A DNA stretch of 64,000 nt from Crocinitomix algicola (lineage in GTDB: Bacteria; Bacteroidota; Bacteroidia; Flavobacteriales_D; Crocinitomicaceae), in NCBI RefSeq assembly GCF_001661595.2, contig NZ_LYPF02000018.1, positions 86,254-150,253 on the forward strand, in the 5' to 3' direction. The notes under the pieces are model-generated. The model searched no databases and was not told the DNA's origin. It was given only the letters and a program-made list of their open reading frames with translations. Position numbers and translations under genes: made by a program. Shown here one piece after another: positions 29,001 to 63,886 of the stretch (position 1 is the first letter of the stretch; every line of letters starts with the position of its first letter).

Positions 29001-29926
29001 TCATTCTTTTCGTGTAAAGAATAGCCGTTATAAGTGGTTACATTTTTTGTTTCCGGATTGGGTGATTGTGATACTGAAGAAATTCTCTTGGGCGAATCTG
29101 AAGGGTCAATGTGAATAAAATAATAGGTCAATGAATCTATTTTATTCTTTCGAGCATTAAAATCAAAAGTATTCGCAAAGACATTATCAGGTCCTTTAGC
29201 ATAAAACAATACATAGTCACTTGCATCAAATGACAGGTCAGCCTCACCCGAAATCAAAATGGCATTTTTTAGCAAATCATCTGGTCTATAAGCCGCGTTA
29301 TTATGGGACAATTCAGTTTGATGATTCCCATAAATATTTATACTTTTCGGATTAATAGATTCAACAGGAATTCCAAGCGAACTTAAGTTAATGTATGTTA
29401 ATTTATACAAACCATCTGAAGGAATTCCAATTTTATACCAGTCCCCAGAAGCCAATACGGAAGAACTTGCAAATTCAACTTCTCTTGAATCTCCACCATT
29501 AACAGTAGAAGCATTAACCTTAATTGACAATTCTTTAATTAGTTCAACGCCACCATTCCTTTGAACTAAGGGTTGGTATCGCACTGAAAGAAAATTCTCT
29601 CCTCTACTCTTCCCAAAATTAACTTCCAAATCCAACTCTTTAGGCAACAAAGACTTGTCGTAACGAGCCGGCAAATCAATTGTTTGATAAATAACATCTT
29701 CTACTTCATATGTGAATTCATTATCACCACGCAAGCCTATATTTTTAGTAATTGTTGTAAAAACTTCGGCTGTAATTGAATTATAATCACATGGAGCGCA
29801 AGTACTTGACTGAGCATCCCATGAAGTTGAAAACACAAACTCTTTAGTTTGAGCACCGATAAAAAAGCTTGACATTAAGATACTTAGCACTAAAAACAAT
29901 GATTTATTGTAGATTACTTCCTTCAT
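26087..29926 (-). CDS. porU: type IX secretion system sortase PorU
   Basis: PorU is the gingipain-like cysteine protease that removes the C-terminal signal of T9SS cargo and attaches the cargo to the cell surface. The product (about 1279 residues) has a signal peptide (ends FFIGAQ), a long N-terminal region, a peptidase C25 domain with catalytic His in NYVGHGGETG (about residue 790) and Cys in ISATCEFSRFDDP (about 824), an Ig-like region, and its own C-terminal T9SS-type domain (LNYPNPFTTNTDF to KLVLL). I took the ATG at 29926 (MKEVIYNKSLF), which starts the signal peptide; a TTG 7 codons upstream is also open. Divergent from the PorP-like gene. Confidence 0.95.
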   Translation of the reverse strand: MKEVIYNKSLFLVLSILMSSFFIGAQTKEFVFSTSWDAQSSTCAPCDYNSITAEVFTTITKNIGLRGDNEFTYEVEDVIYQTIDLPARYDKSLLPKELDLEVNFGKSRGENFLSVRYQPLVQRNGGVELIKELSIKVNASTVNGGDSREVEFASSSVLASGDWYKIGIPSDGLYKLTYINLSSLGIPVESINPKSINIYGNHQTELSHNNAAYRPDDLLKNAILISGEADLSFDASDYVLFYAKGPDNVFANTFDFNARKNKIDSLTYYFIHIDPSDSPKRISSVSQSPNPETKNVTTYNGYSLHEKNEENLLHSGDAWFGENLEGSELTTSFSLNVENRVTSEPVFLEAEIYSSMLSGTGGATIKVNGGVVDDIEILANGASTIAKRNATASTFTSASSSFNVEVEFYRTSPSGEAWVNYLLFNYRRHLRMGSDALIIRDMQSVGLGEVAKYSISNANSNTRVWEITDPANISLVNGSLSGSNYEFKMNADSLRAFLAYNSSQGKTPILSGKYLGKIPNQNLHALPQVDYLIITHESLRAQADRLADIHRNFGTTVHVVDIQKVYNEFSGGVSDPVAVRWMAKMFYDRSDLDPENSIKYLCLFGDGSYDPLNRLDDNNYLLPTYNSVEDGNQFYSSAFTSDDFFGILDDNESMSSSDLIDIGVGRIPVSDVNSAEQVVDKIDHYMNYGSMLYSNADGVQCGDDGYASTFGDWRNRLVLMADDEDSGQFILDCESMSDTTEKYFPEMNIVKVYLDAYKQIVTSGGGRYPDVEEAINQNMNKGALVFNYVGHGGETGLAHERVVTIPMIQNWANVNNMTVFISATCEFSRFDDPARVSAGEFTLTTPYGGAVGLLTTTRLVNIGTNTTMVRNMYTQLFKEEDGKALTLGEIIRRTKNLTAGDQNMRNFTLLGDPAMELGKPKPRIVTDSINGVSITMETDSIKALSKITVKGHLENEMGELLNSYNGYVTPTVYDKWKTRYSLGQDPESPVLPFETQNNIIYKGKSTVTNGEFEFTFVVPKDIDYAYGKGKISYYGNTENENNYGYDTSIVVGGVNPDGLDDEIGPEIELYMNDEHFVNGGMTNKNPLFIAHISDENGVNTTGNGIGHDITLILDGNTSDPIVLNNFYEADLDTYQSGKVNYQLSELEEGSHTITFKVWDVNNNSSESTLEFVVHNEEEIGISHLLNYPNPFTTNTDFYFEHNQVCNSLDVKVEIFTVSGKLVKTILQTVHSQGFRSDGINWDGRDDFGDRLGRGVYVYRLSIETEEGKKAEKIEKLVLL

Positions 29927-30087
29927 AATTATAAAATGTGATGCCAAATTTGTTTTAAAAACGAACTAAAATAATTATTATTGCAAACCTTGTTAAAGAA
30001 TTTGACTTTCGTAACCTTTCTAAAAACAAAGTCGTATTCCCTATGCAAAGTTGATGAAATTTATGGATAACAAAAGCCATACTTGAG

Positions 30088-46286: not shown

Positions 46287-48617
46287 ATGAAAAAACTTTT
46301 AACCCTTTTTTCTTTTATTTTTATTTGCAATTATTGTTTTAGCCAAGACATTATAGGATATGAAGACCTATCTAACTTCGATGTTAGCTTACTTACAGAC
46401 AAGGAACTATATGCCATCCATAAGGAACTAAATGCTAGAAACATGACATTGGCAGATGCCCGTCCTATTGTAATTGAAAAAGGAATGTCGCAAGAGCAGT
46501 TTAAGCTACTAGAGGAGCGATTAGCATTAATAGACCCGCAAGAGGAAGATATCATTGACATGGAATCAAAAGCCTTAGACTATAAACACATTCCTTACTC
46601 TGAAGAAAGCGATTTTGAAAAAAAAGATGGATGGATTTATGGGTCAGAAATTTTTGCGAATAAAGCCCTAAGTTTTGAACCTAATCAAGTTCTTTCTTCG
46701 CCAGAAGCATATCAACTTGGCACAGGTGATCAATTAGAAGTTGTAATTTTTGGTGTTCAACAATTTTCTCAAACCGTAAGAATTAACCAGAACGGCACGA
46801 TTTTCCTAAAAAATATTGGAGCTGTGGCTATTGGTGGTCTACAATTGGGTGCAGCTTCTCAATTAATTAAGGATAAGGCAAGTAAAATTTACAAAACAAT
46901 TCAGACTGGTAATTCGCAAATATCTGTTACGATTACAGATTTCAAAACGATACAAGTTACAATGATTGGTGTAATACAACCAGGGAATTACGCACTTTCT
47001 TCACTTTCAACAGTTTTTAATGCTTTACATGTTGCAGGCGGACCCAATAAAAATGGAACATACAGAGAGATTCAGCTCATTCGAAATAATACGATTTATA
47101 AGACAATAGATTTATATGATTTCTTGACTGCAGGTGATTTAACAGGGAATGTATCGTTACAAAACAACGATATAATTCGTGTTCCAACCTATCAAAAGCG
47201 TGTAGAGGTAATAGGAGAGGTAAAGCGCCCAGGACTATTTGAATTAATAGATGGAGAAACCTTTGATGACTTAATGACATATTGCAGTGGATTTAATGAA
47301 GGCGCCTACACAAAAAATATAAAACTAACAACGACCACAGAATCAGAGTATAAAATCACAACGGTTACACAGGACAAATTTGATGCATTAGAATTTAAGT
47401 CAGGTGACAAATTACAAGTCGATAAAATCCGAGAAACGTATGAGAATAGGGTCATCGTTTCAGGTGCTGTTTTCCGTCCTGCTGAGTACGAATTAACTGA
47501 TGGAATGCGCGTATTAGATTTATTACAAAAAGCAGATGGAACCACAGCGGATGCTTTTACAGATCGGGCCTTAATAGTACGACGCGATGAAAAACTGCAA
47601 CCTGAAATTATTGGAGTAAATTTACTAAAAATCCAAGAAGACCCTTCCTCAGAAGATAACATACCACTATTAAAAGATGATGAACTCATTGTTTCCTCCA
47701 TTACCGATTTAAAAGAAAGTCAATCCGTTGTTTTATCAGGTGAAGTGATGAATCCTGGTATTTTTCAATTTGCCAATAATATGAGCTTGTACGACTTAAT
47801 CATATTGGGTGGCGGATTAAAGACATCAGCATCTACTAAAGTTGAAATTGCCAGAACATCAAGTAATGAAAGTAATGAGACTAAAATTATCCAGGTTGAA
47901 ATCGACCTTTCGTTAAACTCAACGTCGAGCAACTACCAACTACAACCAAATGATGTAATTTCAGTTAGAAAACAATTCAATTATTCGGAAGCAGAAGAAA
48001 TTTCTCTTGCTGGAGAAGTACAATACCCTGGCACTTACGCTATAAAATCTGAAAATGAAAGAGTTGGAAGTGTAATTGATCGTTCAGGGGGACTAACAAA
48101 CAGGGCTAATCCTAAAGGAATTAAAATCATTCGACAACTCGATATTAATTCAACGTCATTAGAGGATAATAGCGTTGTTGTTATTCCTATTAATTATGAG
48201 GCTATTAAAAAAAACCCGGACAGTAAAGCAAATATTTTAATCCAAGAGGGAGATGAAATTAGAGTTGAAAAACTAGTTGAAACGACTGTAGTAACAGGAG
48301 CCGTAGAAATGGAAACTGAAATACCTATAAATGGAAATAAAAGTGCTAAATACTACATTAAAGCCTCAGGAGGTTTTAAGGAAAATGCGAATAAAAAGAA
48401 AACGTATGTTATTTATTCAAATGGAATGGCTAAAACAACCAAACGTTTCGCATTTTTCAAATTTTATCCAAAACCTGATTTTGGTTCAACAATCATTGTA
48501 CCAGAACAAGCCGAAAAAGTTGACGGATTAACTACGCAAGAAATGGTTGCCCTTTCTGCTATACTTAGTAGTGCAACTGGAGTAACAGTTGCCATTATCT
48601 CATTATTAAAACCGTAA
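46287..48617 (+). CDS. Wza-like polysaccharide export protein with six SLBB repeats
   Basis: Outer-membrane/periplasmic exporter for capsule or exopolysaccharide. Signal peptide 1-20 (ends YCFSQ, no lipobox Cys). Polysaccharide-export domain at about 140-225 (YQLGTGDQLEVVIFGVQQF). Then six SLBB-type units, each with a G-x-V-x2-P-G-like turn (IGVIQPGNY, IGEVKRPGLF, SGAVFRPAEY, SGEVMNPGIF, AGEVQYPGTY, TGAVEMETEI). A C-terminal hydrophobic helix (about 752-774) could span the membrane. At 776 residues it is about twice the length of E. coli Wza. First gene of the locus; its stop overlaps the next start by 1 bp. Confidence 0.88.
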   Translation: MKKLLTLFSFIFICNYCFSQDIIGYEDLSNFDVSLLTDKELYAIHKELNARNMTLADARPIVIEKGMSQEQFKLLEERLALIDPQEEDIIDMESKALDYKHIPYSEESDFEKKDGWIYGSEIFANKALSFEPNQVLSSPEAYQLGTGDQLEVVIFGVQQFSQTVRINQNGTIFLKNIGAVAIGGLQLGAASQLIKDKASKIYKTIQTGNSQISVTITDFKTIQVTMIGVIQPGNYALSSLSTVFNALHVAGGPNKNGTYREIQLIRNNTIYKTIDLYDFLTAGDLTGNVSLQNNDIIRVPTYQKRVEVIGEVKRPGLFELIDGETFDDLMTYCSGFNEGAYTKNIKLTTTTESEYKITTVTQDKFDALEFKSGDKLQVDKIRETYENRVIVSGAVFRPAEYELTDGMRVLDLLQKADGTTADAFTDRALIVRRDEKLQPEIIGVNLLKIQEDPSSEDNIPLLKDDELIVSSITDLKESQSVVLSGEVMNPGIFQFANNMSLYDLIILGGGLKTSASTKVEIARTSSNESNETKIIQVEIDLSLNSTSSNYQLQPNDVISVRKQFNYSEAEEISLAGEVQYPGTYAIKSENERVGSVIDRSGGLTNRANPKGIKIIRQLDINSTSLEDNSVVVIPINYEAIKKNPDSKANILIQEGDEIRVEKLVETTVVTGAVEMETEIPINGNKSAKYYIKASGGFKENANKKKTYVIYSNGMAKTTKRFAFFKFYPKPDFGSTIIVPEQAEKVDGLTTQEMVALSAILSSATGVTVAIISLLKP

Positions 48618-49678: not shown

Positions 49679-50698
49679 ATGATTGACTTAACACATAAAA
49701 GTATATTAATTACAGGCGGAACTGGATCTTTAGGTAAAGCCTTAGTTAAAACGATTTTCGAAAAATGGCCAAATATTAAAAGACTTGTCATTTTTTCGCG
49801 CGATGAACAGAAGCAGTTTCTAATGGCGCAAGAATATCCTATAGACGAATTTCCGCAAATTCGTTTTTTTGTCGGTGACGTAAGAGACCAAGAAAGATTG
49901 ATACGGGCTTTTGAAGGCATTGATTATGTTATTCATGCAGCAGCAATGAAACATGTTCACATCGCCGAATACAACCCAAGCGAATGTGTGAAAACAAATG
50001 TGGGGGGTGCTGAAAACGTTATTCATGCTGCAATCACGACAGGTGTAAAACATGTTGTCGCTTTGTCAACTGATAAAGCATGTGCTCCTATTAATTTATA
50101 TGGTGCTACTAAACTAACTTCCGATAAGCTATTTGTTGCTGCCAACAATATTAAAGGTGGGCACGATATAAAGTTTTCAGTTGTACGCTATGGAAACGTA
50201 ATGGGCTCAAATGGATCCGTAATTCCATTCTTCTTAAAAAAGAAAAAAACCGATGGAATTTTACCGATAACTGTAGAGTCGATGACACGTTTCAATATAA
50301 CACTTGATGGAGGAGTAAACATGGTACTTAACGCGCTTGAAAACGCATGGGGAGGAGAAATTTTTATTCCTAAAATTCCATCATACAACCTAGTGGATGT
50401 AGCTGAAGCTATTGGACCAGAATGCGAAAAACCAATAATTGGAATTCGACCAGGTGAAAAAATACATGAGGAAATGATTACACCTTCAGATTCTTTTTTC
50501 ACCTATGATATTGGTGAATATTATACAATTTTACCGCAACATCCAAACTGGAAATTAGAAGCTTTTGTCAATAAATTTAATGCGAAAAAAGTACCTGAAG
50601 GTTTTGCATACAACTCAGGAACGAATCAACAGTGGGAAAGCATAGATAGTTTGCGAGCTTTAATCAAAGAACATGTAGACCCAAATTTTCAAGTTTAA
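49679..50698 (+). CDS. pseB: UDP-N-acetylglucosamine 4,6-dehydratase (inverting), PseB
   Basis: First step of pseudaminic acid synthesis: converts UDP-GlcNAc to a UDP-4-keto-6-deoxy-L-arabino sugar with inversion at C5. NAD(P)-binding GGTGSLGKAL (about 13-22), then DVRDQERLIRAFEGIDYVIHAAAMKHV, and the catalytic STDKA and YGATK (Y-x3-K) motifs. 339 residues, normal for PseB. Abuts the Wzz stop and overlaps pseC by 1 bp. Confidence 0.92.
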   Translation: MIDLTHKSILITGGTGSLGKALVKTIFEKWPNIKRLVIFSRDEQKQFLMAQEYPIDEFPQIRFFVGDVRDQERLIRAFEGIDYVIHAAAMKHVHIAEYNPSECVKTNVGGAENVIHAAITTGVKHVVALSTDKACAPINLYGATKLTSDKLFVAANNIKGGHDIKFSVVRYGNVMGSNGSVIPFFLKKKKTDGILPITVESMTRFNITLDGGVNMVLNALENAWGGEIFIPKIPSYNLVDVAEAIGPECEKPIIGIRPGEKIHEEMITPSDSFFTYDIGEYYTILPQHPNWKLEAFVNKFNAKKVPEGFAYNSGTNQQWESIDSLRALIKEHVDPNFQV

Positions 50699-51852
50699 TG
50701 ACAGATTTTAAAATCCCATATGGCCGCCAAAATATTCAACAGGATGACCTTGATGCAATTACTAAAACTTTAAAATCTGACTTTTTAACTCAAGGACCAA
50801 AGGTAAAAGAGTTTGAAGAAAAATTTGCAGAATATGTAAGTGCCAACTATGCCGTTGCAGTGAGTAATGCAACTGCAGGTTTGCATCTTTCCGTATTAGC
50901 AATGAACCTAAAAAAAGGAGAACGCGTTATAACGACTCCTATTACTTTTGCTGCCTCTGCGAATTGTGTCCGATATGCTGGTGGTGAAGTTTGGTTTGCA
51001 GATATAGATCCGGACACCTATTTGCTCTCCATCAAACACGTTAGAAAATTGATTGAAAGCAAACCAAAAGGCTTTTTTAAAGGCATTATACCTGTTGATT
51101 TTGCTGGTTTACCTGTGAATTTAGAAGAATTTAGAGCACTTGCAAATGAACATGATTTATGGATAATTGAAGATGCATGCCACGCACCGGGCGGATATTT
51201 TATTGATTCATCAAATCAAAAACAATTTTGTGGAAACGGAAATTACGCAGATGTTGCTGTTTTCTCGTTTCACCCCGTAAAGCATATTGCTTGTGGCGAA
51301 GGAGGAATGATTACAACAAATTCAAAAGACATATACCAAAAAATTTTATTGCTCCGAACACATGGTATAACTAAAAATAACATGAGTGAAAACCATGGAG
51401 GATGGTTTTATGAAATGCAAGAATTGGGATTTAATTATAGACTAACCGATTTTCAATCTGCCCTTGGTATAACACAGCTTTCTAAAAACAAAAAAGGAGT
51501 CGAAAAAAGAAATAACATTGCTGAAAAATACAAGAAAGCATTTGAAGGCAAAATAAAATTTCAACACTTACCCCCTAACCTGTACAATGCCCACCACTTG
51601 TTTGTAATTGAAACGGACAAAAGAAAAGAACTTTACGATTTTTTAATATCAAACAATATTTTTGTCCAAATCCATTACATCCCCGTTCATAACTTACCAT
51701 ACTACAAAATGATTGGTTATGAAAATGCGTCCTTAACGAATGCAGAACAGTATTATTCGCGTTGTTTAAGTCTCCCCATGTTCCCTACTTTATCGGATGA
51801 GGAGCAGAATTTTGTAATTAGAAAAATAAACGATTTTTATGACAAAAATTAA
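50698..51852 (+). CDS. pseC: UDP-4-amino-4,6-dideoxy-sugar aminotransferase, PseC
   Basis: PLP-dependent aminotransferase of the DegT/DnrJ/EryC1 family that adds the 4-amino group to the PseB product, with glutamate as donor. IPYGRQNIQQDDLDAI start; substrate/PLP residues in AVSNATAGLHLS, IIEDACHAPGG and the PLP lysine in FSFHPVKHIACGEGG (about 202). 384 residues. Placed after pseB; overlaps the cytidylyltransferase gene by 14 bp. Confidence 0.92.
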   Translation: MTDFKIPYGRQNIQQDDLDAITKTLKSDFLTQGPKVKEFEEKFAEYVSANYAVAVSNATAGLHLSVLAMNLKKGERVITTPITFAASANCVRYAGGEVWFADIDPDTYLLSIKHVRKLIESKPKGFFKGIIPVDFAGLPVNLEEFRALANEHDLWIIEDACHAPGGYFIDSSNQKQFCGNGNYADVAVFSFHPVKHIACGEGGMITTNSKDIYQKILLLRTHGITKNNMSENHGGWFYEMQELGFNYRLTDFQSALGITQLSKNKKGVEKRNNIAEKYKKAFEGKIKFQHLPPNLYNAHHLFVIETDKRKELYDFLISNNIFVQIHYIPVHNLPYYKMIGYENASLTNAEQYYSRCLSLPMFPTLSDEEQNFVIRKINDFYDKN

Positions 51853-52576
51853 GGTCGGAATTATATCGCAAGCAAGAATGACCAGTACACGTTTGCCCGG
51901 TAAGGTATTGAAAAAAATAAACAATAAACCCTTGCTTTGGTATCATATTAATCGTCTGCAAAAATCGGGGTTGCCAATTTTTGTCGCAACAACTACAAAC
52001 CGAGAAGATGATCCAATTGTTGAATTTTGTCTCCAAAACAATCTAAATTTTTTTAGAGGAGACGAAGCCAATGTATTAGAGCGTTTTTATTTATGTGCAA
52101 AGGAATATGATTTGGATGTAATCGTACGTGTAACATCAGATTGTCCACTTATTGATGGTGCATTAATTGAAGAGGGAGTGGATAGGTATACATCTCGAAA
52201 AAATTCAGACCTGTATTTGTCAAATTCCTTAAGTGAAACGTACCCTCGAGGACTGGATTATGAGATTTTCAGTTTTAAACTATTAGAAGAAGCTTTTAAA
52301 AACGCGACATACTCATGGCAAAAAGAGCATGTAACGCCTTATTTTTACAACGAACATAAAGCCCACATTTCTAATGAATTTATCGCGAATAAAGAAAAAA
52401 AGAATCAATATAGAATAACAGTTGATACGACGGAAGATTTTCAACTTATCGAACGATTAATTAAAGAATTTAACGCTCATAAAAAAAGCTATTCGGAAAT
52501 AATTCAAATTATGGATGTAAATTCTGATTTAGCCAATATTAATAGGCATATCGAGCAAAAAAAATTAAAAGAATAA
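51839..52576 (+). CDS. SpsF-type cytidylyltransferase, probable CMP-nonulosonate synthetase
   Basis: 245-residue nucleotidyltransferase. The start IISQARMTSTRLPGKVLKKI is the signature of the SpsF/COG1861 group, not of classical PseF/NeuA (which have ARGGSKRIPxKN). RVTSDCPLIDGALIEEGVDRY follows. In this locus it is the only candidate to activate the nonulosonic acid with CMP. Because it is interleaved with pseC by 14 bp, it belongs to the same pathway. The assignment of the reaction is by context. Confidence 0.75.
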   Translation: MTKIKVGIISQARMTSTRLPGKVLKKINNKPLLWYHINRLQKSGLPIFVATTTNREDDPIVEFCLQNNLNFFRGDEANVLERFYLCAKEYDLDVIVRVTSDCPLIDGALIEEGVDRYTSRKNSDLYLSNSLSETYPRGLDYEIFSFKLLEEAFKNATYSWQKEHVTPYFYNEHKAHISNEFIANKEKKNQYRITVDTTEDFQLIERLIKEFNAHKKSYSEIIQIMDVNSDLANINRHIEQKKLKE

Positions 52577-52616
52577 AAGACTTTAATTGTCTACAACAAC
52601 CAAAACGTATAAAAGT

Positions 52617-53405
52617 ATGGAACTGATTAACAAAATGTATCATTTTAAGTATAATGATCAAACTAAAAGAATTGAAGGTTTTTCAGAACAAGATATCATT
52701 CATATTCGAGAGAAGATAAATCGTGGTGAGGTCATCATCTTAAAAAACTGTTTCGATCGCGAGGCTAGTATTGAAATACGAAAAAAAACATTCGCCTATT
52801 TTCAAAATAACGAACCTTTAAACCTTCCCATAACCAATGACACACCTAATTTCTATAGACGGGACAACAATCCTGAAAAATCTGCTGTAAAAAGAGTTAA
52901 GCAAGCGTACAATGCGTTTTATTGGAATAAAGGTTTAGGTGATGACGTCCACTACTTACGTGCAATGTCCATTTTAAGAAATAAAATAGCAGAATTACCA
53001 ACTGAATATGCAACGCAACAAATTGAACCGGACCATTTCATAACATTATCGTCTGTTGCTCAATATCCATTAGGTGGTGGTTACTTAAGTAAACATGTCG
53101 ATCCTTTAAATAAACAATTTTGTGTTATCATAAGCTGCTTATCAGAAAAAGGTCCTGATTTCCCTAAAGGGGGACTCTATATCGAAGTAAATAATGAACG
53201 AATTTATTTAGATGATGAAATAGAAATTGGTGATGTTTACCTTATGAACCCGTCCACAATTCATGGAGTGGAACCTATTGATGAGGGTGATCAACCAGAA
53301 TGGTCTAACGAGAAAGGAAGATGGATACTCTTTCCTTCACTTGTAGAGCTTAAAACACTTTATGGAGAAAAAGTGAAAGGTTTAAAGGACTTGAACGAAA
53401 AGTAA
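52617..53405 (+). CDS. 2-oxoglutarate/Fe(II)-dependent oxygenase-like protein
   Basis: 262-residue protein of the phytanoyl-CoA-dioxygenase-like fold. Visible iron ligands: H-x-D in GGYLSKHVDPLNKQF (about 160-175) and the distal His in NPSTIHGVEPI; Arg in GRWILFPSL could bind 2-oxoglutarate. EVIILKNCFDREASIEIRKK near the start is typical of the family. It would hydroxylate a small substrate or a sugar-nucleotide. Not a standard Pse gene. Start: a TTG 10 codons upstream is also open; I chose the ATG at 52617. The next gene begins directly at its stop. Confidence 0.75.
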   Translation: MELINKMYHFKYNDQTKRIEGFSEQDIIHIREKINRGEVIILKNCFDREASIEIRKKTFAYFQNNEPLNLPITNDTPNFYRRDNNPEKSAVKRVKQAYNAFYWNKGLGDDVHYLRAMSILRNKIAELPTEYATQQIEPDHFITLSSVAQYPLGGGYLSKHVDPLNKQFCVIISCLSEKGPDFPKGGLYIEVNNERIYLDDEIEIGDVYLMNPSTIHGVEPIDEGDQPEWSNEKGRWILFPSLVELKTLYGEKVKGLKDLNEK

Positions 53406-54599
53406 ATGAAAAAAAAACAAGTATTAATTATTAATTGTGGTTGGGAACAGGAAACTTTAATCAGAAGGTGTGCCGAAAAATTTTCTGTCATAGGCATACA
53501 CCATAACGATGATTATGTTTTAAAAAATAAAATCGAAAAAGTTTATATTGGTGATTTAAGAGATTTAAAGTTTATTGAGGCTGTTTACAATAGACATAAC
53601 TTTACAGCAGTACTTTCCAATCAGTGCGACTATAGTTTATTTAGTCAATCTTACTTATGCACAAAGTATAATTTACCCGGTCCTAACCTAAAAGCAGCGC
53701 AACTGTCCAACTCTAAGTATTTACAACGAAAGGTAGGAGCTCAAAAAGGAATAAACGCACCTGACTACAAATTAGTTTGGAGTTTAGAAGAAGCGCGAAG
53801 GGCTATCAAGAAAATTGGTTTACCCGCCATTATCAAGCCTAATGATAATAGAGGTAGCTTTGGGGTAAGTAAAATAGAAACACAAAACGAATTAAAGGAA
53901 GCCTATTTTCATGCACTTCAAAATTCAATAAGCAGAGGCGTAATAATTGAATCTTATATAAAGGGACTTCATGTTGCAGTTGATGGTTATTATTTCAAAG
54001 GTGAATATAAATCACTTGCACTTGGATGGCGACACATGGACACGAACAAGGAGCAAGTTGCAGTGCGAATGACTTATGGAGTCGGTGATACAGCTATAGA
54101 AAATAAAATAATGAAAATCCATGAAAAAGTTTGTAGCGAATTCAATTATGATTTTGGATTTAACCATGGAGAATACATCGTTGATAATAAGGGGGGAGTA
54201 TATCTTGTAGAAAACACAAATCGAGGTGGAGGTGTTTATCTATCTGAAATTGTTGTTCCCGCTGTTTCTGGAATTGATCATGTTGGCAACCTTATCAATG
54301 ATGCAACATCTAATTTAAAAATAAATACGCCCAAGAAAATAGCTCGAAAGCCAGTAAGTGTTTCATTTATAAAATTTAATCCTGGAAAGATAAAAGCAAT
54401 TGGGTATCCAAAAGAAAAGGATGATAGAATCATTAAAGAAAAATTGTTTAGAAAGGTAAATGATACGATCAAACCTATTCATTCTGGTGCTGACAGAGAT
54501 GGAATAATCATTATTTCTGGAACTGAGGATGTAGATCATCTTACCCAAAACTATCAAAATTCCGTTGAGTTACAATATACTTCTGTAAAGTCAAATTAA
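53406..54599 (+). CDS. ATP-grasp family ligase
   Basis: 397-residue ATP-grasp protein that would form an amide or similar bond between a carboxylate and an amine. N-terminal Rossmann-like part with VLIINCGWEQETLIRRC; central ATP-grasp domain with LPAIIKPNDNRGSFGVSKIE (about 139-158) and metal/ATP residues in YLVENTNRGGGVYL (about 268-281); then a C-terminal domain (PKKIARKPVSVSFIKFNPG). Resembles biotin-carboxylase/carbamoyl-phosphate-type ligases, not a specific known ligase. Gene order puts it between the oxygenase and PseI. It could attach an amino acid to a free amine made by the PIG-L protein; inference only. Confidence 0.8.
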   Translation: MKKKQVLIINCGWEQETLIRRCAEKFSVIGIHHNDDYVLKNKIEKVYIGDLRDLKFIEAVYNRHNFTAVLSNQCDYSLFSQSYLCTKYNLPGPNLKAAQLSNSKYLQRKVGAQKGINAPDYKLVWSLEEARRAIKKIGLPAIIKPNDNRGSFGVSKIETQNELKEAYFHALQNSISRGVIIESYIKGLHVAVDGYYFKGEYKSLALGWRHMDTNKEQVAVRMTYGVGDTAIENKIMKIHEKVCSEFNYDFGFNHGEYIVDNKGGVYLVENTNRGGGVYLSEIVVPAVSGIDHVGNLINDATSNLKINTPKKIARKPVSVSFIKFNPGKIKAIGYPKEKDDRIIKEKLFRKVNDTIKPIHSGADRDGIIIISGTEDVDHLTQNYQNSVELQYTSVKSN

Positions 54600-54623
54600 T
54601 TTAAAAAAGCTTAAAAATAGAAT

Positions 54624-55661
54624 ATGACACAACATTCAAAGTCAATAACAGTTGGCGATACAAAGATAAAAAAAGGAAACTGTTTCATTATCGCAGATGT
54701 TGGATCCAATCATATGCAAGATTTAAACCTTGCACTTGAGACAATTGATGCCGCAGCAGAAAATGGGGCACATGCTGTCAAATTTCAATCACTTGACATT
54801 GAAAAATTATACTTTGACCCAACAGAGGACATTAAATCTCTTTATTCAAAAATTTACTTAAATGAGGAGTGGTATTACCAATTAAATGAACGGTGTAACC
54901 AAAGAGGTGTTCATTTTTTCTCATCTCCCACCTATATGGATTCTATAGAGGCTTTGGAAAAACTAGATACAAAAATCTATAAACTAGCTTCGGCTCAAAT
55001 TGGTACTTTTCCTCAGATAATTCAAAAAGTAGCAGAACTTAAAAAGCCTACAATCTTTTCAACCGGTTTAGTGTCGTATGGAGAATTAGAAAATGCTGTT
55101 AAAATTTTCGAAAAAAATAAAAATGATGACTATATCATTCTTCATTGTAATGCAATATATCCAACTACTCCCGATCGTGTCAATCTTGAAAGGATGTTAA
55201 TTTATGAAAAGATGTTTAATTGTTTGGTCGGATTCTCGGATCATACATTAGGAAACTATTGTTCTTTTGCCGCGGTTGCTAAAGGAGCTACGGTTATTGA
55301 ACGTCATTTTACGAGTAGTAACTCAGTAAAGTCTCCTGATATGGTAGTCTCGATTAACCCTGACCAATTACGGGATTTATCAAGGGGTATTGCGGACATT
55401 CAAAAAAGTCTTGTTACGCAACCAAGACTTACAATTGAAACTGAAGAATTATCGTTTAAAAAATCTTTGACATATAGAATTGTATTTAACCGTGCGCTAA
55501 AAACGGGTGACAAAATTAAACTTCAAGACTTAAAATTTCTGCGTCACACAGAAGGTGTTGATTGTAAAGACTTGGATTTTATCCTCAGTAAAAATGCCCG
55601 GGTAAACGCGGATAAACTTTCGGGAGAATTATTAAATTGGGCTGATTTAAAATTTGAGTAA
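54624..55661 (+). CDS. pseI: pseudaminic acid synthase-like protein
   Basis: Condenses a 6-carbon amino sugar with phosphoenolpyruvate to form the 9-carbon nonulosonic acid (PseI/NeuB family). N-terminal TIM barrel with NCFIIADVGSNHMQDLNLAL (about 17-36) and metal residues such as VIERHF and SDHTLGNY, and a C-terminal SAF (antifreeze-like) domain (about 285-345: RIVFNRALKTGDKIKLQDLKF). 345 residues, normal. With PseB/C/G/H present it is most likely PseI, not NeuB or LegI. Confidence 0.85.
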   Translation: MTQHSKSITVGDTKIKKGNCFIIADVGSNHMQDLNLALETIDAAAENGAHAVKFQSLDIEKLYFDPTEDIKSLYSKIYLNEEWYYQLNERCNQRGVHFFSSPTYMDSIEALEKLDTKIYKLASAQIGTFPQIIQKVAELKKPTIFSTGLVSYGELENAVKIFEKNKNDDYIILHCNAIYPTTPDRVNLERMLIYEKMFNCLVGFSDHTLGNYCSFAAVAKGATVIERHFTSSNSVKSPDMVVSINPDQLRDLSRGIADIQKSLVTQPRLTIETEELSFKKSLTYRIVFNRALKTGDKIKLQDLKFLRHTEGVDCKDLDFILSKNARVNADKLSGELLNWADLKFE

Positions 55662-55663
55662 TT

Positions 55664-56488
55664 ATGAACATATTTGACTTTAATGTCCACTTACAACCAA
55701 TTGGAGATCAAAATGTTGTTCACGACAAATTAGCGCAAGAAGGAACTTTGTTTCCTGCTGATACAATCAATTTTTTCACAAAATACTGGGAAAAGTTTAA
55801 ATCATTAAAAGGTTTAAATTTGATGATATTCAATAAGAACTATTTTCATGATAAAGATGAAAACATCAAATTAATGCGTTTTTTAGATGCACATTTCGAG
55901 TCGCACACCTTTACCTATCTAATTGACTTTAGGGATGATAACTGGAAGACTTTAATTGATAACGCAAGTGAAAATGGTGTTAAATTTATAAAATTTCATT
56001 GTTATTTTATGTGTTTAACAGCTGAATATCATGATAGAGGAGTAGAAATTTCTCAATATGCGGCAAGTAAAAAAATTGGCATTGTCATATGCACGAGCTT
56101 CGGCACCAGCGCCATGTATAGCATTGACAGTATGAGTTTCGCTTGTAAAGTTGCTGACCAAGTAAATGATGTACCAATCATTCTCTTACATTCTGGCGGC
56201 GCTAGGATTCATCATGCTTTACTACTTGCATTGGACAAACCCAATATTTACTTAGAAACTTCCTTTACTTTACCTTTTTATGTTGGGTCCTCTCTTGAAA
56301 AAGACTTTGCATTCTGTTATAAAAAATTAGGGATAGAAAAAGTGCTCTTTGCTAGTGACCATCCATATGTAGATATAAATCATGCAATTCAAGAAAACAT
56401 TTCGTTTTTCGAAAGACATCATTTTTCTAAGGCGGATACTCAAGCCATACTATTCGAAAATGCTAAAAAACTAATAAGTAGTTTTTAG
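55664..56488 (+). CDS. amidohydrolase-fold protein, TIM-barrel
   Basis: 274-residue protein of the amidohydrolase 2/metal-dependent hydrolase type, starting MNIFDFNVHLQPIGD. In the family the N-terminal metal motif is usually D-x-H-x-H; here the first His is replaced by Asn (N-V-H-L). Other likely metal/active-site residues are His in KFIKFHCYF, His in ILLHSGGARIHHA and Asp in FASDHPYVD. Such proteins hydrolyse amide, ester or lactone bonds, or decarboxylate. In the Pse operon, directly after pseI (2-bp gap). Its substrate is unknown. Confidence 0.7.
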   Translation: MNIFDFNVHLQPIGDQNVVHDKLAQEGTLFPADTINFFTKYWEKFKSLKGLNLMIFNKNYFHDKDENIKLMRFLDAHFESHTFTYLIDFRDDNWKTLIDNASENGVKFIKFHCYFMCLTAEYHDRGVEISQYAASKKIGIVICTSFGTSAMYSIDSMSFACKVADQVNDVPIILLHSGGARIHHALLLALDKPNIYLETSFTLPFYVGSSLEKDFAFCYKKLGIEKVLFASDHPYVDINHAIQENISFFERHHFSKADTQAILFENAKKLISSF

Positions 56489-56514
56489 TTTTTTAGGTAA
56501 AATTAGAGTAAATC

Positions 56515-57474
56515 ATGAAAATTGTCATATTAACAGAAGCTGGGGAAGGAATTGGATTAGGCCACTATATGCGAACCAAAATGGTTTACCAAGAGTTTCT
56601 AAACAATGGAATTGAATCAAAGTATTATCTGGCTAAAGCTGGGGATTTATATCGATTCGATCATGTTATTTTACTAGACTGGCTATCTAAAATCACTTCT
56701 ATAAAAGATGAGCTTATTGATGCAATTGTAATTGTTGATAGTTATTTAGTAAAGATTGAAGTTTTGAATTACATTAATCTAATTTGCAAAGAATTAATTA
56801 TATATGATGATTATCAGAGAATTCAGTACCCTAAAAATGCAGCAATATTAAATGTTAATATCTACGGAGACGAAATAAACTACGAACAAATTCGAGTTGC
56901 CTCTGGTAAAAAATACACCTGTGTTCGTCCTAAATTTAGAGAAGAAAGGAATAAATACTCCATTCGAGAAAAACTCGAAAAAGTACTTATCACTTTAGGT
57001 GGTTCAGATTATAGAAATAGATTACCTATTATAATCGATATTTGTGATTCTTTAGGACTTGATATTCGCGTTGTAGCCGGTAATGATAGTTTAAAGTTGA
57101 AACTATGCGAAAAATTTCCAGAAATGAACATTTTTGGCTTTATCAATGAGGATGACATGAAAAACTTAATGAACTCATCTGATTTGGCAATTTCGGCTGG
57201 TGGTCAAACCCTACACGAATTAAGTATTTTAGGGATTCCAACTATAGGCATATGTATCGATAATGATCAAGAAAAAAACTTAAGTTTTTATACAAGAACA
57301 GGCTTCATAAAAAAGAGCATAATGTGGAATGATCCTCTTTTTTCAAAAAAACTTGAAAATGCAATTGAACACATGGGGCCCAAAGAAACAAGACTAAAGT
57401 GTTCAAATATTGGACAAAAGTTAGTAGATGGTAAAGGACAAGAAAATATATTCAAATGGATATTGAACTTATAA
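56515..57474 (+). CDS. pseG: UDP-sugar hydrolase, PseG
   Basis: Removes UDP from UDP-2,4-diacetamido-2,4,6-trideoxy-L-altrose to release the free sugar for PseI. MurG-like GT-B fold. N-terminal GIGLGHYMRTKM (H about 17, as in GxGHxxR), then LITLGGSDYRNRLPII and DLAISAGGQTLHELSILGIP, the typical PseG C-terminal region. 319 residues. Overlaps pseH by 19 bp, in another frame. Confidence 0.85.
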   Translation: MKIVILTEAGEGIGLGHYMRTKMVYQEFLNNGIESKYYLAKAGDLYRFDHVILLDWLSKITSIKDELIDAIVIVDSYLVKIEVLNYINLICKELIIYDDYQRIQYPKNAAILNVNIYGDEINYEQIRVASGKKYTCVRPKFREERNKYSIREKLEKVLITLGGSDYRNRLPIIIDICDSLGLDIRVVAGNDSLKLKLCEKFPEMNIFGFINEDDMKNLMNSSDLAISAGGQTLHELSILGIPTIGICIDNDQEKNLSFYTRTGFIKKSIMWNDPLFSKKLENAIEHMGPKETRLKCSNIGQKLVDGKGQENIFKWILNL

Positions 57475-57926
57475 CTTACAGAAAGGTTCATAAAAATGAT
57501 ATGAAAATATTATTTGAATGGGCCAATGATCCAATTGTTAGGAAGAATGCCTTTTCTAATGACGCTATACAATGGTCGGATCACGTTAATTGGTTTTTAG
57601 ATAAACTAAACGACCCAAACTGTTTATTTTTCATATTTTATTTAAAATCAACTCCAATCGGACAGATTAGGATAGACTTTAAAGACAATGAGGGCATAAT
57701 AGACTATAGTGTCGCTCCAAATCATCGAGGTAAAGGACTAGGAACAGCTCTACTTAAAATAATTTCTTCAATTTATCCACCTCACCTTAGTTTACCTCTA
57801 AAAGGAATTGTTAAAACATCTAATGTTGGTTCAATTAAAGCTTTTCAATTTGCTAACTTTACCGAATTAGATAAGGTTATTATACGCAACAGTACATGCA
57901 GCGTATTTAAAAAATTCATAAAATGA
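57456..57926 (+). CDS. pseH: GNAT acetyltransferase, PseH-like
   Basis: N-acetyltransferase for the amino sugar that PseG cleaves. 156-residue RimJ/RimL-type GNAT: RKVHKNDMKILFEWANDP at the start, IGQIRIDF, and the acetyl-CoA loop APNHRGKGLGTALL (about 89-102). Sequence features (HVNWFLDKL; YSVAPNHRGKG) fit the PseH group. It overlaps the end of pseG by 19 bp and the PIG-L gene by 4 bp. Confidence 0.8.
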   Translation: MDIELITYRKVHKNDMKILFEWANDPIVRKNAFSNDAIQWSDHVNWFLDKLNDPNCLFFIFYLKSTPIGQIRIDFKDNEGIIDYSVAPNHRGKGLGTALLKIISSIYPPHLSLPLKGIVKTSNVGSIKAFQFANFTELDKVIIRNSTCSVFKKFIK

Positions 57927-58636
57927 ACGGTATTACTTTTGAAAATAAAAAAATATTAGTGGTAGTAGCACATCCTGATGACGAGTTGCTGGGACTAGGA
58001 GGAACATTACATCGCTTAAAACGTGAAAATGAGGCCACTATCAAAGTGGTTATATTAGGGGAGGGAATAACAAGTCGTTCAAATACAAGAGATGCGGAAC
58101 TTTGGAACAAAGAACTACATGTCCACAATAACAACATATTAGAAGCAAAGCGTAAAATAGGTTATGATGACTTAAGTGTATATCAATTTCCAGATAACCG
58201 TTTTGATTCCGTCGATTTATTAGACATAATTAAAGTGATTGAAAAAGAAAAAAATGATTTTCAACCAGACATCATTTTCACACATCATGGTGGAGATCTA
58301 AACATAGATCATCAACGAACATTTGACGCCGTTATAACCGCAAGTAGACCAATGGAAAGTGAAACGACAAACACAATCATTACTTTTGAGACTCCGAGTG
58401 GAACAGAGTGGCGCGCTTCTAGTCATCCTATGCATTTTATTCCTAATCTCTACGTAAAAATTGAAGAAGAAGATTTAGCGGCTAAAATTTCTGGAATGGA
58501 GTGCTACCAATTCGAAAAACGAACTTACCCCCATCCTAGAAGTCCTGAAGCCCTTCGAATTCAAGCTCAGCGATCAGGAATAATAATCGGTGAAATGTAC
58601 GCAGAAGCTTTTGTTATAGTTCGTTCAAAAATATAA
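57923..58636 (+). CDS. PIG-L/LmbE family N-deacetylase
   Basis: 237-residue zinc-dependent deacetylase. Metal motifs AHPDDELLGLGG (about 14-25) and HHGGDLNIDHQR (H-x3-D, about 128-139) with H further on (SSHPMHFI). These enzymes remove N-acetyl groups from sugars and similar molecules. Directly coupled to pseH (ATGA-type overlap), so it probably acts on a Pse intermediate or product, e.g. to free an amine for another acyl group. The substrate is inferred from position only. Confidence 0.85.
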   Translation: MNGITFENKKILVVVAHPDDELLGLGGTLHRLKRENEATIKVVILGEGITSRSNTRDAELWNKELHVHNNNILEAKRKIGYDDLSVYQFPDNRFDSVDLLDIIKVIEKEKNDFQPDIIFTHHGGDLNIDHQRTFDAVITASRPMESETTNTIITFETPSGTEWRASSHPMHFIPNLYVKIEEEDLAAKISGMECYQFEKRTYPHPRSPEALRIQAQRSGIIIGEMYAEAFVIVRSKI

Positions 58637-58667: not shown

Positions 58668-60002
58668 ATGAAAATATTATTCGTAGAAAACAGGTATAAA
58701 ACTGATCTTTGGGAAATTATTGCTCGAGTTTATCAAGACCTAGGTCATGAGATTCACTGGATTGTTCAAAATGCTGAATTCACACCAAGTATTGGGAAAG
58801 TTCATATTATTCCATATCCTAAAAAATCTGATTTAAATAAGGTAACAAAAACAGCGAACCTGGACAGAATTATACATACCAACAGGGGTATACGCTACTT
58901 TGAAATTCAAAATGAAAACTTTATTTTCTATTATAATGATCGCATTACTTCATTAATTGAAACGATTCAACCAAATTTGGCTTTTGGTGAAGCAACAGCT
59001 TTTCATGAATTATTAGTTATCAAATCCTGCGAAGAAAATAAAATTTTATACTTAAACCCTTGTACTTCACGATATCCAAGTAAACGTTTTTCATTTTACA
59101 AGTTTGACACAACAACCCCATACTTCGGTTCAAATGAAACTTATTCTGAAGATGAAGCTATTTCGTTTGTGAACGAAATTACAGGTCGAAAAGTTAAGCC
59201 TGACTACATGAAGAACTCACAAATATCATTAACGAATCAGGATAAAATTAAAGACAAAATTAAATTAATTAAAGGTTTCTACAGAGGTGAAAAATACAAC
59301 ACTCCATCTCCATTTGTAAAAAGAAAATTAAATAAAATCAGTGCAAAAAACATTCGCCATTGGGATCAATTATCCACTCCTTTCAATCAAATAACTGGAG
59401 AATTCAAACTTTTGTATCCTTTACAAATGCAGCCTGAGGCTAATATAGATGTTTGGGGTCACCCACACTCGGATCAACATGTAATTATCCGAGAAACTCT
59501 TAAACAGCTAAGAAATAATGAAGTTTTAATTTTAAAACCAAACCCTAAGTCAAAATATGAAATAGATGATCAAATACTTGACTTGATAAAAAGTAACCCA
59601 AAAAAACTTTATTGCCTCCATCATTCTAGCAGCATGACTGATATTTGGAACGAAATTCATTTAATTTTAACGGTAACCGGAACCGTTTCAATAGAGTGTG
59701 TTTTTTCTAATAAACCAATTGTAATGTTGGGGGATGGTATTCAATTGGAACAAAAAAACTGCATCAAAATAGATAGTTACCAAAAACTACCAGCTATAAT
59801 TGACCAAATCAAAACCGAATCATTCCCAAAACTCACATTAACCGAAAAGCAACACTTTTTGAACCGATTAGTCTCGTCTAGCTACCAAGGTATTGTGGCT
59901 GATGGACTAAACTTCAAAGACCATTTACAAGATGATGAAAATAAGAAGTTATTGATTTCAGCCTTTAAAAATATTTTAAGTCGGTTTGAACACTCCAATT
60001 AG
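58668..60002 (+). CDS. KpsS-like capsule protein, candidate nonulosonate transferase
   Basis: 444-residue cytosolic protein that resembles capsule polysaccharide biosynthesis/KpsS-type GT-B proteins. N-terminal domain starts MKILFVENRYKTDLWEIIARVYQ; C-terminal half has YPLQMQPEANIDVWGHPHSDQ, EVLILKPNPKSKYEID, LTVTGTVSIECVFSNKPIVMLGD, typical of the Kdo/nonulosonate transferase fold. A KpsS-type protein has been described as a retaining pseudaminyl transferase in Acinetobacter, so this is the best candidate in the locus. It has no classical Pse-transferase name here. The 3' end overlaps the polymerase gene by 17 bp. Confidence 0.6.
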   Translation: MKILFVENRYKTDLWEIIARVYQDLGHEIHWIVQNAEFTPSIGKVHIIPYPKKSDLNKVTKTANLDRIIHTNRGIRYFEIQNENFIFYYNDRITSLIETIQPNLAFGEATAFHELLVIKSCEENKILYLNPCTSRYPSKRFSFYKFDTTTPYFGSNETYSEDEAISFVNEITGRKVKPDYMKNSQISLTNQDKIKDKIKLIKGFYRGEKYNTPSPFVKRKLNKISAKNIRHWDQLSTPFNQITGEFKLLYPLQMQPEANIDVWGHPHSDQHVIIRETLKQLRNNEVLILKPNPKSKYEIDDQILDLIKSNPKKLYCLHHSSSMTDIWNEIHLILTVTGTVSIECVFSNKPIVMLGDGIQLEQKNCIKIDSYQKLPAIIDQIKTESFPKLTLTEKQHFLNRLVSSSYQGIVADGLNFKDHLQDDENKKLLISAFKNILSRFEHSN

Positions 60003-62722: not shown

Positions 62723-63886
62723 ATGAAAGTGGCGTTAGTTCAAGATTGGCTCACAACGATGGGTGGAGCTGAAAAAGTTTTTAAAGAAATCATAAAATTA
62801 TACCCAAATGCTGATGTATATACCTTGGTATACAATGATGACATAATTGAGAAACTCGGGATTAAAAAAGAAAAAGTAACGGCATCTTATATTCAAAAAT
62901 TACCGTTTGCTCGAACGAAACATCGTAATTATTTACCACTATTTAAAAAAGCCATAGAGAGCTTTGACTTGACTGAATATGATCTAATTATTTCTTCATC
63001 CTATTCCGTTGCTAAAGGCGTGTTATCTCATGGAAACCAAACACATATTTGTTATTGTCACTCTCCAGTTCGCTATGCTTGGGATCTTTACCATCAATAT
63101 ATGAAGATTAGTAACCTTAAAAGAGGCCCTAAAACTTGGATGGTTAAACGCGAATTGCATAAATTGAGAATTTGGGATGTAATTAGTGCTAACCGAGTAG
63201 ATTATTTCATTTCTAATTCGGATTTTATCAAAACAAGAATTAATAAGATCTACAGACGGGAAGCAGAAACAATTTACCCGCCAGTTGATCTCGATAAATT
63301 TACGCTAAAGACGGAGAAAGAAGATTTTTACATCACTTGTTCTAGACTTGTTCCATATAAAAAAGTAGACTTAATCGTTAAAGCGTTCCAAAATATGCCG
63401 GATAAAAAATTAAAAGTCATTGGCACTGGGCCTGAGTTAAAGCGTATTAAAAAAATGGCAGGACCTAACGTGGAAATGATGGGATTTCAATCAGATGAGA
63501 TATTACGTGATGAAATTTCCAAAGCAAGAGGCTTTATATTTGCCGCTAAAGAAGATTTTGGCATTGTTCCTGTGGAAGCTCAAGCATGTGGTACACCCGT
63601 AATAGCTTTTGCTGAAGGAGGATCACTTGAAACGGTAATAAATCATAAAACTGGTGTTTATTTTTATGAACAAACAGCAAGTTCCATAGAAAAAGCAATT
63701 GCTGAATTTGAATATATCGAAAATGAATTCAATCCGCTTGCTATTCGTGAACATGCAGAGAAATTTGACACACCAACATTTCATAAAAACTTCAAAAAAT
63801 TTATTGATAACCATATTGATTCAGGTCATCCCCGATGCAAAAGTGTAAATAAAACCAGCACTCCATTAATTTTTCAAAGTGCATAA
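62723..63886 (+). CDS. glycosyltransferase family 4 protein
   Basis: 387-residue GT-B glycosyltransferase that adds a sugar to the lipid-linked repeat unit. N-terminal VALVQDWLTTMGGAEKVF with the donor-side GG; C-terminal E-x7-E motif in AKEDFGIVPVEAQACGTPVIAFAEGG (Glu residues at about 277 and 285), and ITCSRLVPYKKVDLIVKAF. This resembles mannosyl/rhamnosyl-type enzymes; the sugar is not predictable. The tail ends CKSVNKTSTPLIFQSA, without family similarity that I can see. Confidence 0.88.
   Translation: MKVALVQDWLTTMGGAEKVFKEIIKLYPNADVYTLVYNDDIIEKLGIKKEKVTASYIQKLPFARTKHRNYLPLFKKAIESFDLTEYDLIISSSYSVAKGVLSHGNQTHICYCHSPVRYAWDLYHQYMKISNLKRGPKTWMVKRELHKLRIWDVISANRVDYFISNSDFIKTRINKIYRREAETIYPPVDLDKFTLKTEKEDFYITCSRLVPYKKVDLIVKAFQNMPDKKLKVIGTGPELKRIKKMAGPNVEMMGFQSDEILRDEISKARGFIFAAKEDFGIVPVEAQACGTPVIAFAEGGSLETVINHKTGVYFYEQTASSIEKAIAEFEYIENEFNPLAIREHAEKFDTPTFHKNFKKFIDNHIDSGHPRCKSVNKTSTPLIFQSA

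What the first reader, a model, noticed from the sequence alone, without database searches (positions are those of the whole stretch)
49679..58636. Pseudaminic-acid-type pathway interleaved with four non-canonical tailoring enzymes
Seen: PseB, PseC, an SpsF-like cytidylyltransferase, PseI, PseG and PseH in one tight run, with an Fe/2OG oxygenase (52617-53405), an ATP-grasp ligase (53406-54599), an amidohydrolase-fold protein (55664-56488) and a PIG-L deacetylase (57923-58636) placed between them at gaps of 0-40 bp or with overlaps. Known: ordinary Pse5Ac7Ac needs only the six Pse enzymes; natural variants carry other N-acyl groups. Inference: PIG-L frees an amine, ATP-grasp attaches an amino or hydroxy acid, perhaps one hydroxylated by the oxygenase, and the amidohydrolase edits. 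This could be an undescribed nonulosonic acid.
Basis: partly seen in the sequence, partly recalled or inferred. Interest (0 to 1): 0.75.

Follow-up and report, generated by a model that had tools for sequence, protein, structure and literature searches.

The report
Sugar-acid pathway with swappable acyl-tailoring module
A bacterial surface-polysaccharide locus carries genes for a likely sialic-acid-like sugar interleaved with extra enzymes, and relatives of these enzymes recur beside the same sugar genes in distant bacterial groups; they are predicted to strip an acetyl group from the sugar and put a different, possibly hydroxylated, acid in its place, which would give a surface sugar that may be undescribed.

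Summary
In detail: ten tightly packed + strand genes (49679-58636) of the families named, in a surface-polysaccharide locus. Among 20 genomes with a clear amidohydrolase relative (window included), 15 carry the ATP-grasp ligase, 14 the PIG-L protein and 16 a pseI or pseG gene on the same contig. Of the 19 other loci, 13 add a methyltransferase and 14 have exactly one of RraA aldolase, HMGL-type aldolase or PhyH oxygenase; the window has only its own Fe/2OG oxygenase. A planctomycete locus repeats oxygenase, ATP-grasp, amidohydrolase, PIG-L and pseBCIG. Corrections: PIG-L is a wider accessory of such clusters, also found beside formyltransferases; the oxygenase is rare and interchangeable; nine of twelve cassette PseIs form their own clade. 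Best reading: PIG-L frees an amine and the ligase attaches a non-acetyl acid shaped by the variable enzyme. All chemistry is inferred; no product or assay was seen. Paper searches in the held library found no description of the cassette; Shewanella sfmABCDE is the nearest analogue. New variant of a known kind.

The parts
49679..50698 (+). PseB, UDP-GlcNAc 4,6-dehydratase (inverting)
   Evidence: TIGR03589 489.5 bits, above its cut-off 407.75
50698..51852 (+). PseC, aminotransferase
   Evidence: TIGR03588 448.3 bits, above its cut-off 423.5
51839..52576 (+). SpsF-like cytidylyltransferase, predicted CMP-NulO synthetase
52617..53405 (+). Fe(II)/2-oxoglutarate oxygenase (OXY), alternative start TTG 52587
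   Evidence: H160xD162, H216, R235 invariant; beta-helix model; repeats in planctomycete locus L045
53406..54599 (+). ATP-grasp, predicted carboxylate-amine ligase (GRASP)
   Evidence: PF13535; E256, E269, R273 invariant and N272 nearly invariant; profile matches 4dim (1.2e-38) and L-amino acid ligase BL00235, 3vot (9e-36)
54624..55661 (+). NeuB/PseI-family nonulosonic acid synthase, cassette-type subgroup
   Evidence: PF03102; tree clade 100/99; phylum survey
55664..56488 (+). Amidohydro_2 TIM-barrel protein (AMH), role uncertain, perhaps lactonase or deacylase
   Evidence: PF04909; model pLDDT 93.6; fold matches
56515..57474 (+). PseG-like UDP-sugar hydrolase
   Evidence: TIGR03590 118 bits, below its cut-off 153.55
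57456..57926 (+). PseH-like GNAT N-acetyltransferase
   Evidence: TIGR03585 45.2 bits, below its cut-off 93.1; PF00583
57923..58636 (+). PIG-L family, predicted de-N-acetylase
   Evidence: PF02585 77.5 bits; HPDD and DH motifs aligned to PDB chain 3wl4_A; the next two matches are named diacetylchitobiose deacetylase
46287..48617 (+). SLBB polysaccharide export protein (context)
   Evidence: PF10531, PF02563
48617..49678 (+). Wzz chain-length protein (context)
   Evidence: PF02706
59986..61245 (+). oligosaccharide repeat unit polymerase (context)
   Evidence: TIGR04370 75.7 bits, above its cut-off 40
62723..63886 (+). group 1 glycosyltransferase (context)
   Evidence: PF00534

Best explanation
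The genes encode a likely pseudaminic-acid-type nonulosonic acid pathway carrying a tailoring cassette that recurs in distant bacteria and is predicted to replace one N-acetyl group of the sugar with a different, possibly hydroxylated, acid. PseB and PseC would make the 4-amino sugar nucleotide (firm family assignment). PseH, PseG, the NeuB/PseI-type synthase and the cytidylyltransferase would acetylate it, release it, extend it with PEP and activate it (weaker assignment). PIG-L would remove an N-acetyl group and expose an amine; the ATP-grasp ligase would activate a carboxylic acid and join it to that amine as an amide. The variable enzyme would shape the acid: an aldolase, usually with a methyltransferase, in many relatives, and here the Fe/2OG oxygenase, probably hydroxylating the acid or the attached chain. 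The amidohydrolase may open a lactone form of the hydroxy acid or hydrolyse an intermediate; this is the least certain step. The sugar would enter the surface polysaccharide encoded around it.
For: Recurrence: of 20 genomes with an AMH relative (window included), 15 carry GRASP, 14 PIG-L and 16 PseI or PseG on the same contig; no locus holds two of RraA, HMGL and PhyH. L045 repeats OXY (47%), GRASP, AMH, PIG-L and PseB/C/I/G plus methyltransferase, HMGL aldolase and aminotransferase. GRASP's two best profile matches are 4dim, deposited as phosphoribosylglycinamide synthetase, and an L-amino acid ligase. PIG-L keeps its HPDD motif. In nine fetched PIG-L loci with PseI or PseG but no cassette, three have formyltransferases next to PIG-L (L087, L091, L092), L085 has a GNAT next to it and L089 a different ATP-grasp two ORFs away, as a deacetylate-then-reacylate step would predict. 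Of 12 cassette PseIs, 9 form a 100/99 clade with no non-cassette row; of 108 genomes with a PseI-family match among 296 of the phylum, only the window's and G259 exceed 38% identity, and G259 has the cassette. Shewanella sfmABCDE joins a NeuB protein with ATP-grasp and methyltransferase; its flagellin bears a NulO-like residue with one N-acetyl plus a second moiety of up to 264 Da (PMC3765264, passages).
Against: No product structure or enzyme assay. PseG, PseH and PseI score below their equivalog cut-offs, so configuration and acyl positions are uncertain. The window cassette lacks the methyltransferase and aldolase of most relatives, so its acid need not resemble theirs. AMH occurs without GRASP in L015 (13 kb) and L017, and L041 has GRASP and AMH but no PIG-L in 20 kb. 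Cassette loci L005, L014 and L041 have PseIs outside the 9-row clade. The strong OXY-cassette link outside the window was read directly in one genome only. Three of the nine non-cassette PIG-L loci (L093, L094, L096) showed no clear alternative N-acylating enzyme beside PIG-L among the one or two neighbours checked in each. PIG-L is not cassette-specific. AMH was found in none of the 8 other genomes of the window's genus.
Confidence: 0.62

Rival explanations
1. The ATP-grasp, PIG-L, oxygenase and amidohydrolase modify a different amino sugar of the same polysaccharide, and the NulO itself is plain.
For: The genes lie in a surface-polysaccharide locus, and gene linkage cannot say which sugar is the substrate.
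Against: GRASP and AMH lie among pseI and pseG in several distant genomes, and 9 of 12 cassette PseIs form their own clade; a substrate outside the NulO pathway would not predict that.
Confidence: 0.15
2. The extra enzymes build a different carbon skeleton or precursor used by the unusual PseI subtype, instead of an acyl side chain.
For: Cassette PseIs mostly form their own clade, and pyruvate-type aldolases (RraA, HMGL) recur in relatives.
Against: PseB, PseC, PseG and PseI are all kept in the window, so the normal skeleton route is present; ATP-grasp plus PIG-L points to amide chemistry; the window cassette has no such aldolase.
Confidence: 0.13
3. The acid is attached early, on the UDP-sugar or free amino sugar, in place of PseH acetylation, and PIG-L only trims mis-acetylated intermediates.
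For: PseC yields a free 4-amine that PseH normally acetylates (PMC7910423, passages), and a separate PseI subtype could reflect a bulkier substrate.
Against: A PseH-like GNAT gene is kept and overlaps the PIG-L gene; PIG-L recurs with formyltransferases where no GRASP exists.
Confidence: 0.1

Closest known systems
Canonical Pse5Ac7Ac pathway (PseB, C, H, G, I, F)
   Same: PseB and PseC above equivalog cut-offs; PseH-, PseG- and NeuB/PseI-family members in one run.
   Different: A CTP_transf_3 protein that is not PseF; PseG, PseH and PseI below equivalog cut-offs; four extra enzymes; PseI in a cassette-linked clade.
Shewanella oneidensis sfmABCDE flagellin modification operon (PMC3765264, passages seen)
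   Same: NeuB-family synthase in one operon with an ATP-grasp protein and tailoring enzymes; product is a NulO-like residue with one N-acetyl plus a second moiety of up to 264 Da.
   Different: Its five genes are NeuB, TPP enzyme, reductase, methyltransferase and ATP-grasp, with no PIG-L, amidohydrolase or oxygenase; the window cassette has those three and no methyltransferase. Sequences of the two ATP-grasp proteins were not compared.
PIG-L plus formyltransferase NulO clusters (L087, L091, L092)
   Same: PIG-L next to NulO genes and an enzyme family that acylates amines.
   Different: Formyltransferases present, GRASP, AMH and OXY absent.
Mycothiol MshB/MshC logic (recalled, no call)
   Same: A PIG-L-family deacetylase exposes a sugar amine that an ATP-dependent ligase then acylates.
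   Different: MshC is tRNA-synthetase-like, not ATP-grasp; glucosamine-inositol, not NulO.
Treponema denticola flagellar NulO with a 2-methoxy-4,5,6-trihydroxyhexanoyl group (recalled; PMID 27696564 not held; nothing seen)
   Same: A NulO with a long O-methylated hydroxy-acyl amide, the kind of product the aldolase plus methyltransferase versions could make.
   Different: Genes not compared here.

Membership tests
Canonical pseudaminic acid pathway | PseB and PseC above equivalog cut-offs | tested here: met
Canonical pseudaminic acid pathway | PseI above TIGR03586 cut-off | tested here: not met
   228.6 of 340.25 bits; NeuB model 247.8 of 399.65
Canonical pseudaminic acid pathway | PseG and PseH above cut-offs | tested here: not met
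   118 of 153.55 and 45.2 of 93.1 bits
Canonical pseudaminic acid pathway | PseF cytidylyltransferase | tested here: not met
   20.8 of 205.7 bits; a CTP_transf_3 protein stands in its place
Fe(II)/2-oxoglutarate oxygenase | HxD...H iron triad and a downstream 2OG-binding Arg (motif recalled) | tested here: met
   H160, D162, H216, R235 invariant in 21 rows
Fe(II)/2-oxoglutarate oxygenase | double-stranded beta-helix fold | tested here: met
   predicted model and its matches
Fe(II)/2-oxoglutarate oxygenase | 2OG-dependent turnover of a substrate | not testable with these tools
   needs an assay
ATP-grasp carboxylate-amine ligase | ATP-grasp domain with acidic metal ligands (recalled) | tested here: met
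   PF13535; E256, E269 invariant and N272 nearly invariant; 4dim and 3vot profile matches
ATP-grasp carboxylate-amine ligase | amide-bond formation on an amine | not testable with these tools
   needs an assay
PIG-L de-N-acetylase | PF02585 and HPDD zinc motif (motif recalled) | tested here: met
PIG-L de-N-acetylase | deacetylase activity | not testable with these tools
   needs an assay
Amidohydro_2 superfamily | PF04909 and TIM-barrel fold | tested here: met
Amidohydro_2 superfamily | canonical first HxH metal pair (recalled; not universal in the superfamily) | tested here: not met
   D5-x-N7-x-H9, each nearly invariant in 32 rows
Shewanella sfm-type operon | NeuB-family synthase in one run with ATP-grasp | tested here: met
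   sfm described
Shewanella sfm-type operon | SAM methyltransferase, TPP enzyme and reductase in the operon | tested here: not met
   none among the ten ORFs by Pfam; the cassette-type methyltransferase was also not found in the genome

The most novel reading that the evidence does not exclude
A modular, horizontally spread system makes a whole family of undescribed nonulosonic acids. A PIG-L deacetylase and an ATP-grasp ligase swap an acetyl group for a custom acid, and the acid-building enzyme in a single slot (RraA aldolase, HMGL aldolase, PhyH oxygenase or this Fe/2OG oxygenase) is exchanged between lineages to change the surface sugar, with a dedicated synthase subtype that accepts the acylated sugar.
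Probability: 0.42. Interest if true: 0.72.

Novelty: new variant of a known kind. Interest (0 to 1): 0.57.

Why it matters
Bacterial nonulosonic acids carry many N-acyl groups besides acetyl, and for many of these I know of no assigned enzyme (recalled background). A cassette that recurs in distant bacteria with one interchangeable enzyme slot gives a gene-to-structure handle: the slot enzyme should predict the acyl group, and the set can be tested with purified enzymes on Pse intermediates that can be made in vitro. The cassette PseI subtype could serve as a sequence marker for such sugars, with the exceptions reported.

Tried and rejected
Oxygenase alignment A2 against genome contigs gave no confirmed relative (87 pattern matches); none of the 17 genomes of loci L004-L020 has it (no positive control inside that call, the window genome matches). 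Among 200 genomes of the family of G451 one match was interrupted by stops and was not followed. Among 199 of the family of G460 two matched, G480 strongly and G501 weakly. Around the weak OXY hits in G501, G305 and G427 blastp showed no GRASP, AMH or PIG-L. Rows dropped before the count of 20: L022-L031 (10 of the 28 loci, 23-32% identity, no other cassette gene by blastp); weak AMH matches of the genome search in G050 (region L044 had no cassette gene), in G472, G520, G537, G575 and in G863, G866, G867, G870, G884, G885, G886, none of the last eleven looked at further; L086, taken as the same locus as L006; and a third, partial AMH copy in G458. Rejected: plain Pse5Ac7Ac with passenger genes, because the extra genes recur with pse genes. 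The structure search gives the amidohydrolase a fold, not a function: lactonases, decarboxylases and dihydroorotases all match, and the best two rows are tied and uncharacterised. Paper searches: listings only, except passages of PMC3765264, PMC4758666 (nothing on the cassette) and PMC7910423. PseI tree: two fragments under 300 aa (L012_22, L094_13218) were dropped. GC content is 0.316-0.332 over 52-64 kb against 0.322-0.385 before it: too slight to use.
Full report
Observation. The ten ORFs at 49679-58636 are real, on one strand and closely packed. PseB and PseC are above their equivalog cut-offs. The cytidylyltransferase, synthase, PseG and PseH are family members below the equivalog cut-offs. 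The oxygenase has no Pfam or NCBIfam match, but its 21-row alignment keeps H160, D162, H216 and R235 in every row, and its model is a double-stranded beta-helix matching 2-oxoglutarate oxygenases. Flanking genes are a polysaccharide export protein and Wzz upstream, and a repeat-unit polymerase and a glycosyltransferase downstream. The window ends at the contig end (150253), so the rest of the locus is unseen.

Recurrence. The amidohydrolase profile found 28 loci in genome contigs; ten distant ones (L022-L031) carried no other cassette gene and were dropped. The other 18 loci are 17 genomes, since L020 and L021 are two contigs of one. With the window, L041 (G030, found with the same profile) and L045 (G480, found with the oxygenase and then with this profile) there are 20 genomes; weaker whole-genome matches were not counted (listed under Tried and rejected). 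By profile search GRASP is on the AMH contig in 15 of 20, PIG-L in 14 of 20, PseI or PseG in 16 of 20, and the methyltransferase in 13 of 20. Of the five without GRASP, three (L016, L018, L020/L021) are cut by contig ends; L015 and L017 have sequence upstream and no GRASP. L041 has no PIG-L in 20 kb. Record titles name Sulfurimonas, Sulfuricurvum, Spirochaetaceae, Leptospirales, Pirellulaceae, Rhodohalobacter, Saprospiraceae, a gammaproteobacterium, a cyanobacterium and a Paceibacterota genome among others. Within the window's own genus none of 8 other genomes has the AMH, and 3 of 59 relatives searched match, one of them the window's genome and one weak, so the cassette is not part of the lineage's core.

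The variable slot. In relatives the stretch near GRASP and AMH often holds a SAM methyltransferase and one other enzyme: RraA aldolase (7 loci), HMGL-type aldolase (5) or PhyH oxygenase (2). No locus has two of these three (families; counts). Of the 15 GRASP loci, 14 have one of them or OXY; L006 has none, but has an unassigned protein of about 480 aa between PseI and GRASP. The window has OXY alone, and L045 has OXY together with HMGL, so OXY need not be a plain substitute for the aldolase. The window genome gave no match to the cassette methyltransferase, while the same search finds it in four control genomes at E 6.5e-72 or better; G453 (L006) and G030 (L041) gave only weak matches, E 1.7e-6 or worse.

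The oxygenase link. OXY is rare: 3 of 395 genomes of the phylum, the window's own and two weak, and 2 of 199 in the family of G460, one weak. In G480 (L045) the strong match lies in a full cassette: PseB, PseC, cytidylyltransferase, PseI, aminotransferase, two unassigned ORFs, OXY, GRASP, methyltransferase, AMH, HMGL aldolase, PseG and PIG-L. Three more oxygenase proteins share an exact longest-contig length with an amidohydrolase (74017, 44373, 19249). That suggests, but does not show, the same contigs.

PIG-L. Of 375 genomes of the phylum, 26 (window's own included) have a PIG-L match at E 1e-25 or better. I fetched regions for 20 of these. Ten hold PseI or PseG by profile; the other ten do not, some being short contigs. 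Of the other nine, L087, L091 and L092 have formyltransferases next to PIG-L, L085 has a GNAT next to it, L089 has a different ATP-grasp two ORFs away (36 bits to the GRASP profile), and L084 has a carbamoyltransferase and PhyH in the cluster; for L093, L094 and L096 I checked one or two neighbours each, finding a dehydrogenase, a methyltransferase-like and a WbqC protein, and a hexapeptide transferase. So PIG-L fits a general deacetylation step that precedes various acylations. This is inference from neighbourhood.

PseI subtype. In a tree of 20 PseI rows, nine of the 12 cassette rows, window included, form a 100/99 clade with no non-cassette row; named members belong to Bacteroidota, Balneolota, Spirochaetota, Campylobacterota and Planctomycetota. 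L014 is next to it, and L005 and L041 group with non-cassette rows. The non-cassette rows were chosen through PIG-L, so they are not a full sample. Among 296 genomes of the phylum, 108 have a PseI-family match at 1e-30 or better; only the window genome and G259 (50%) exceed 38% identity, and G259 holds the cassette (L086). This suggests a synthase fitted to the altered sugar, with exceptions.

Mechanism and limits. The route to CMP-Pse5Ac7Ac is established in C. jejuni and H. pylori (PMC7910423, passages seen). PIG-L and ATP-grasp suggest deacetylation and amide formation; the ligase profile's best matches are 4dim, deposited as phosphoribosylglycinamide synthetase (1.2e-38), and the L-amino acid ligase BL00235 (9e-36). 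The amidohydrolase has an Asn in place of the first metal His (motif recalled) and a fold shared by lactonases, decarboxylases and others, so its role is a guess. Shewanella sfmABCDE is the nearest described analogue I saw (PMC3765264, passages seen): there, loss of the ATP-grasp gene lowered flagellin mass slightly less than loss of the other genes. Searches for the cassette itself in the held library gave no description; that library lacks most subscription papers.

Noticed in passing
L011:1-12781: A Leptospirales locus carries two successive copies of the cassette (GRASP, PhyH, AMH, PseG twice); in the first copy the PhyH part is split over two ORFs and no methyltransferase ORF was called.
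   Followed up: partly
L020:931-2304: A B12-binding radical SAM protein sits between the RraA aldolase and the methyltransferase, a possible extra methylation of the acid.
   Followed up: no
L006:7239-8711: A protein of about 480 aa with no Pfam or NCBIfam match sits between PseI and GRASP in the one GRASP locus lacking any known slot enzyme.
   Followed up: no
L089:9543-12903: PIG-L beside a metallophosphoesterase and near a different ATP-grasp (PF15632) in a NulO cluster: possibly a second ligase system.
   Followed up: no
L045:11041-12167: Two ORFs with no Pfam match lie between the aminotransferase and the oxygenase in the planctomycete cassette.
   Followed up: no
window 42235-44688: An 817 aa protein joining a class I/II aminotransferase-fold domain with a GNAT/FemAB-like domain.
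   Followed up: no
window 58668-60002: A 444 aa protein directly after PIG-L with no Pfam or NCBIfam match, a candidate transferase for the sugar.
   Followed up: partly
window 26087-29947: A large Peptidase C25 protein with a FlgD-like Ig domain.
   Followed up: no
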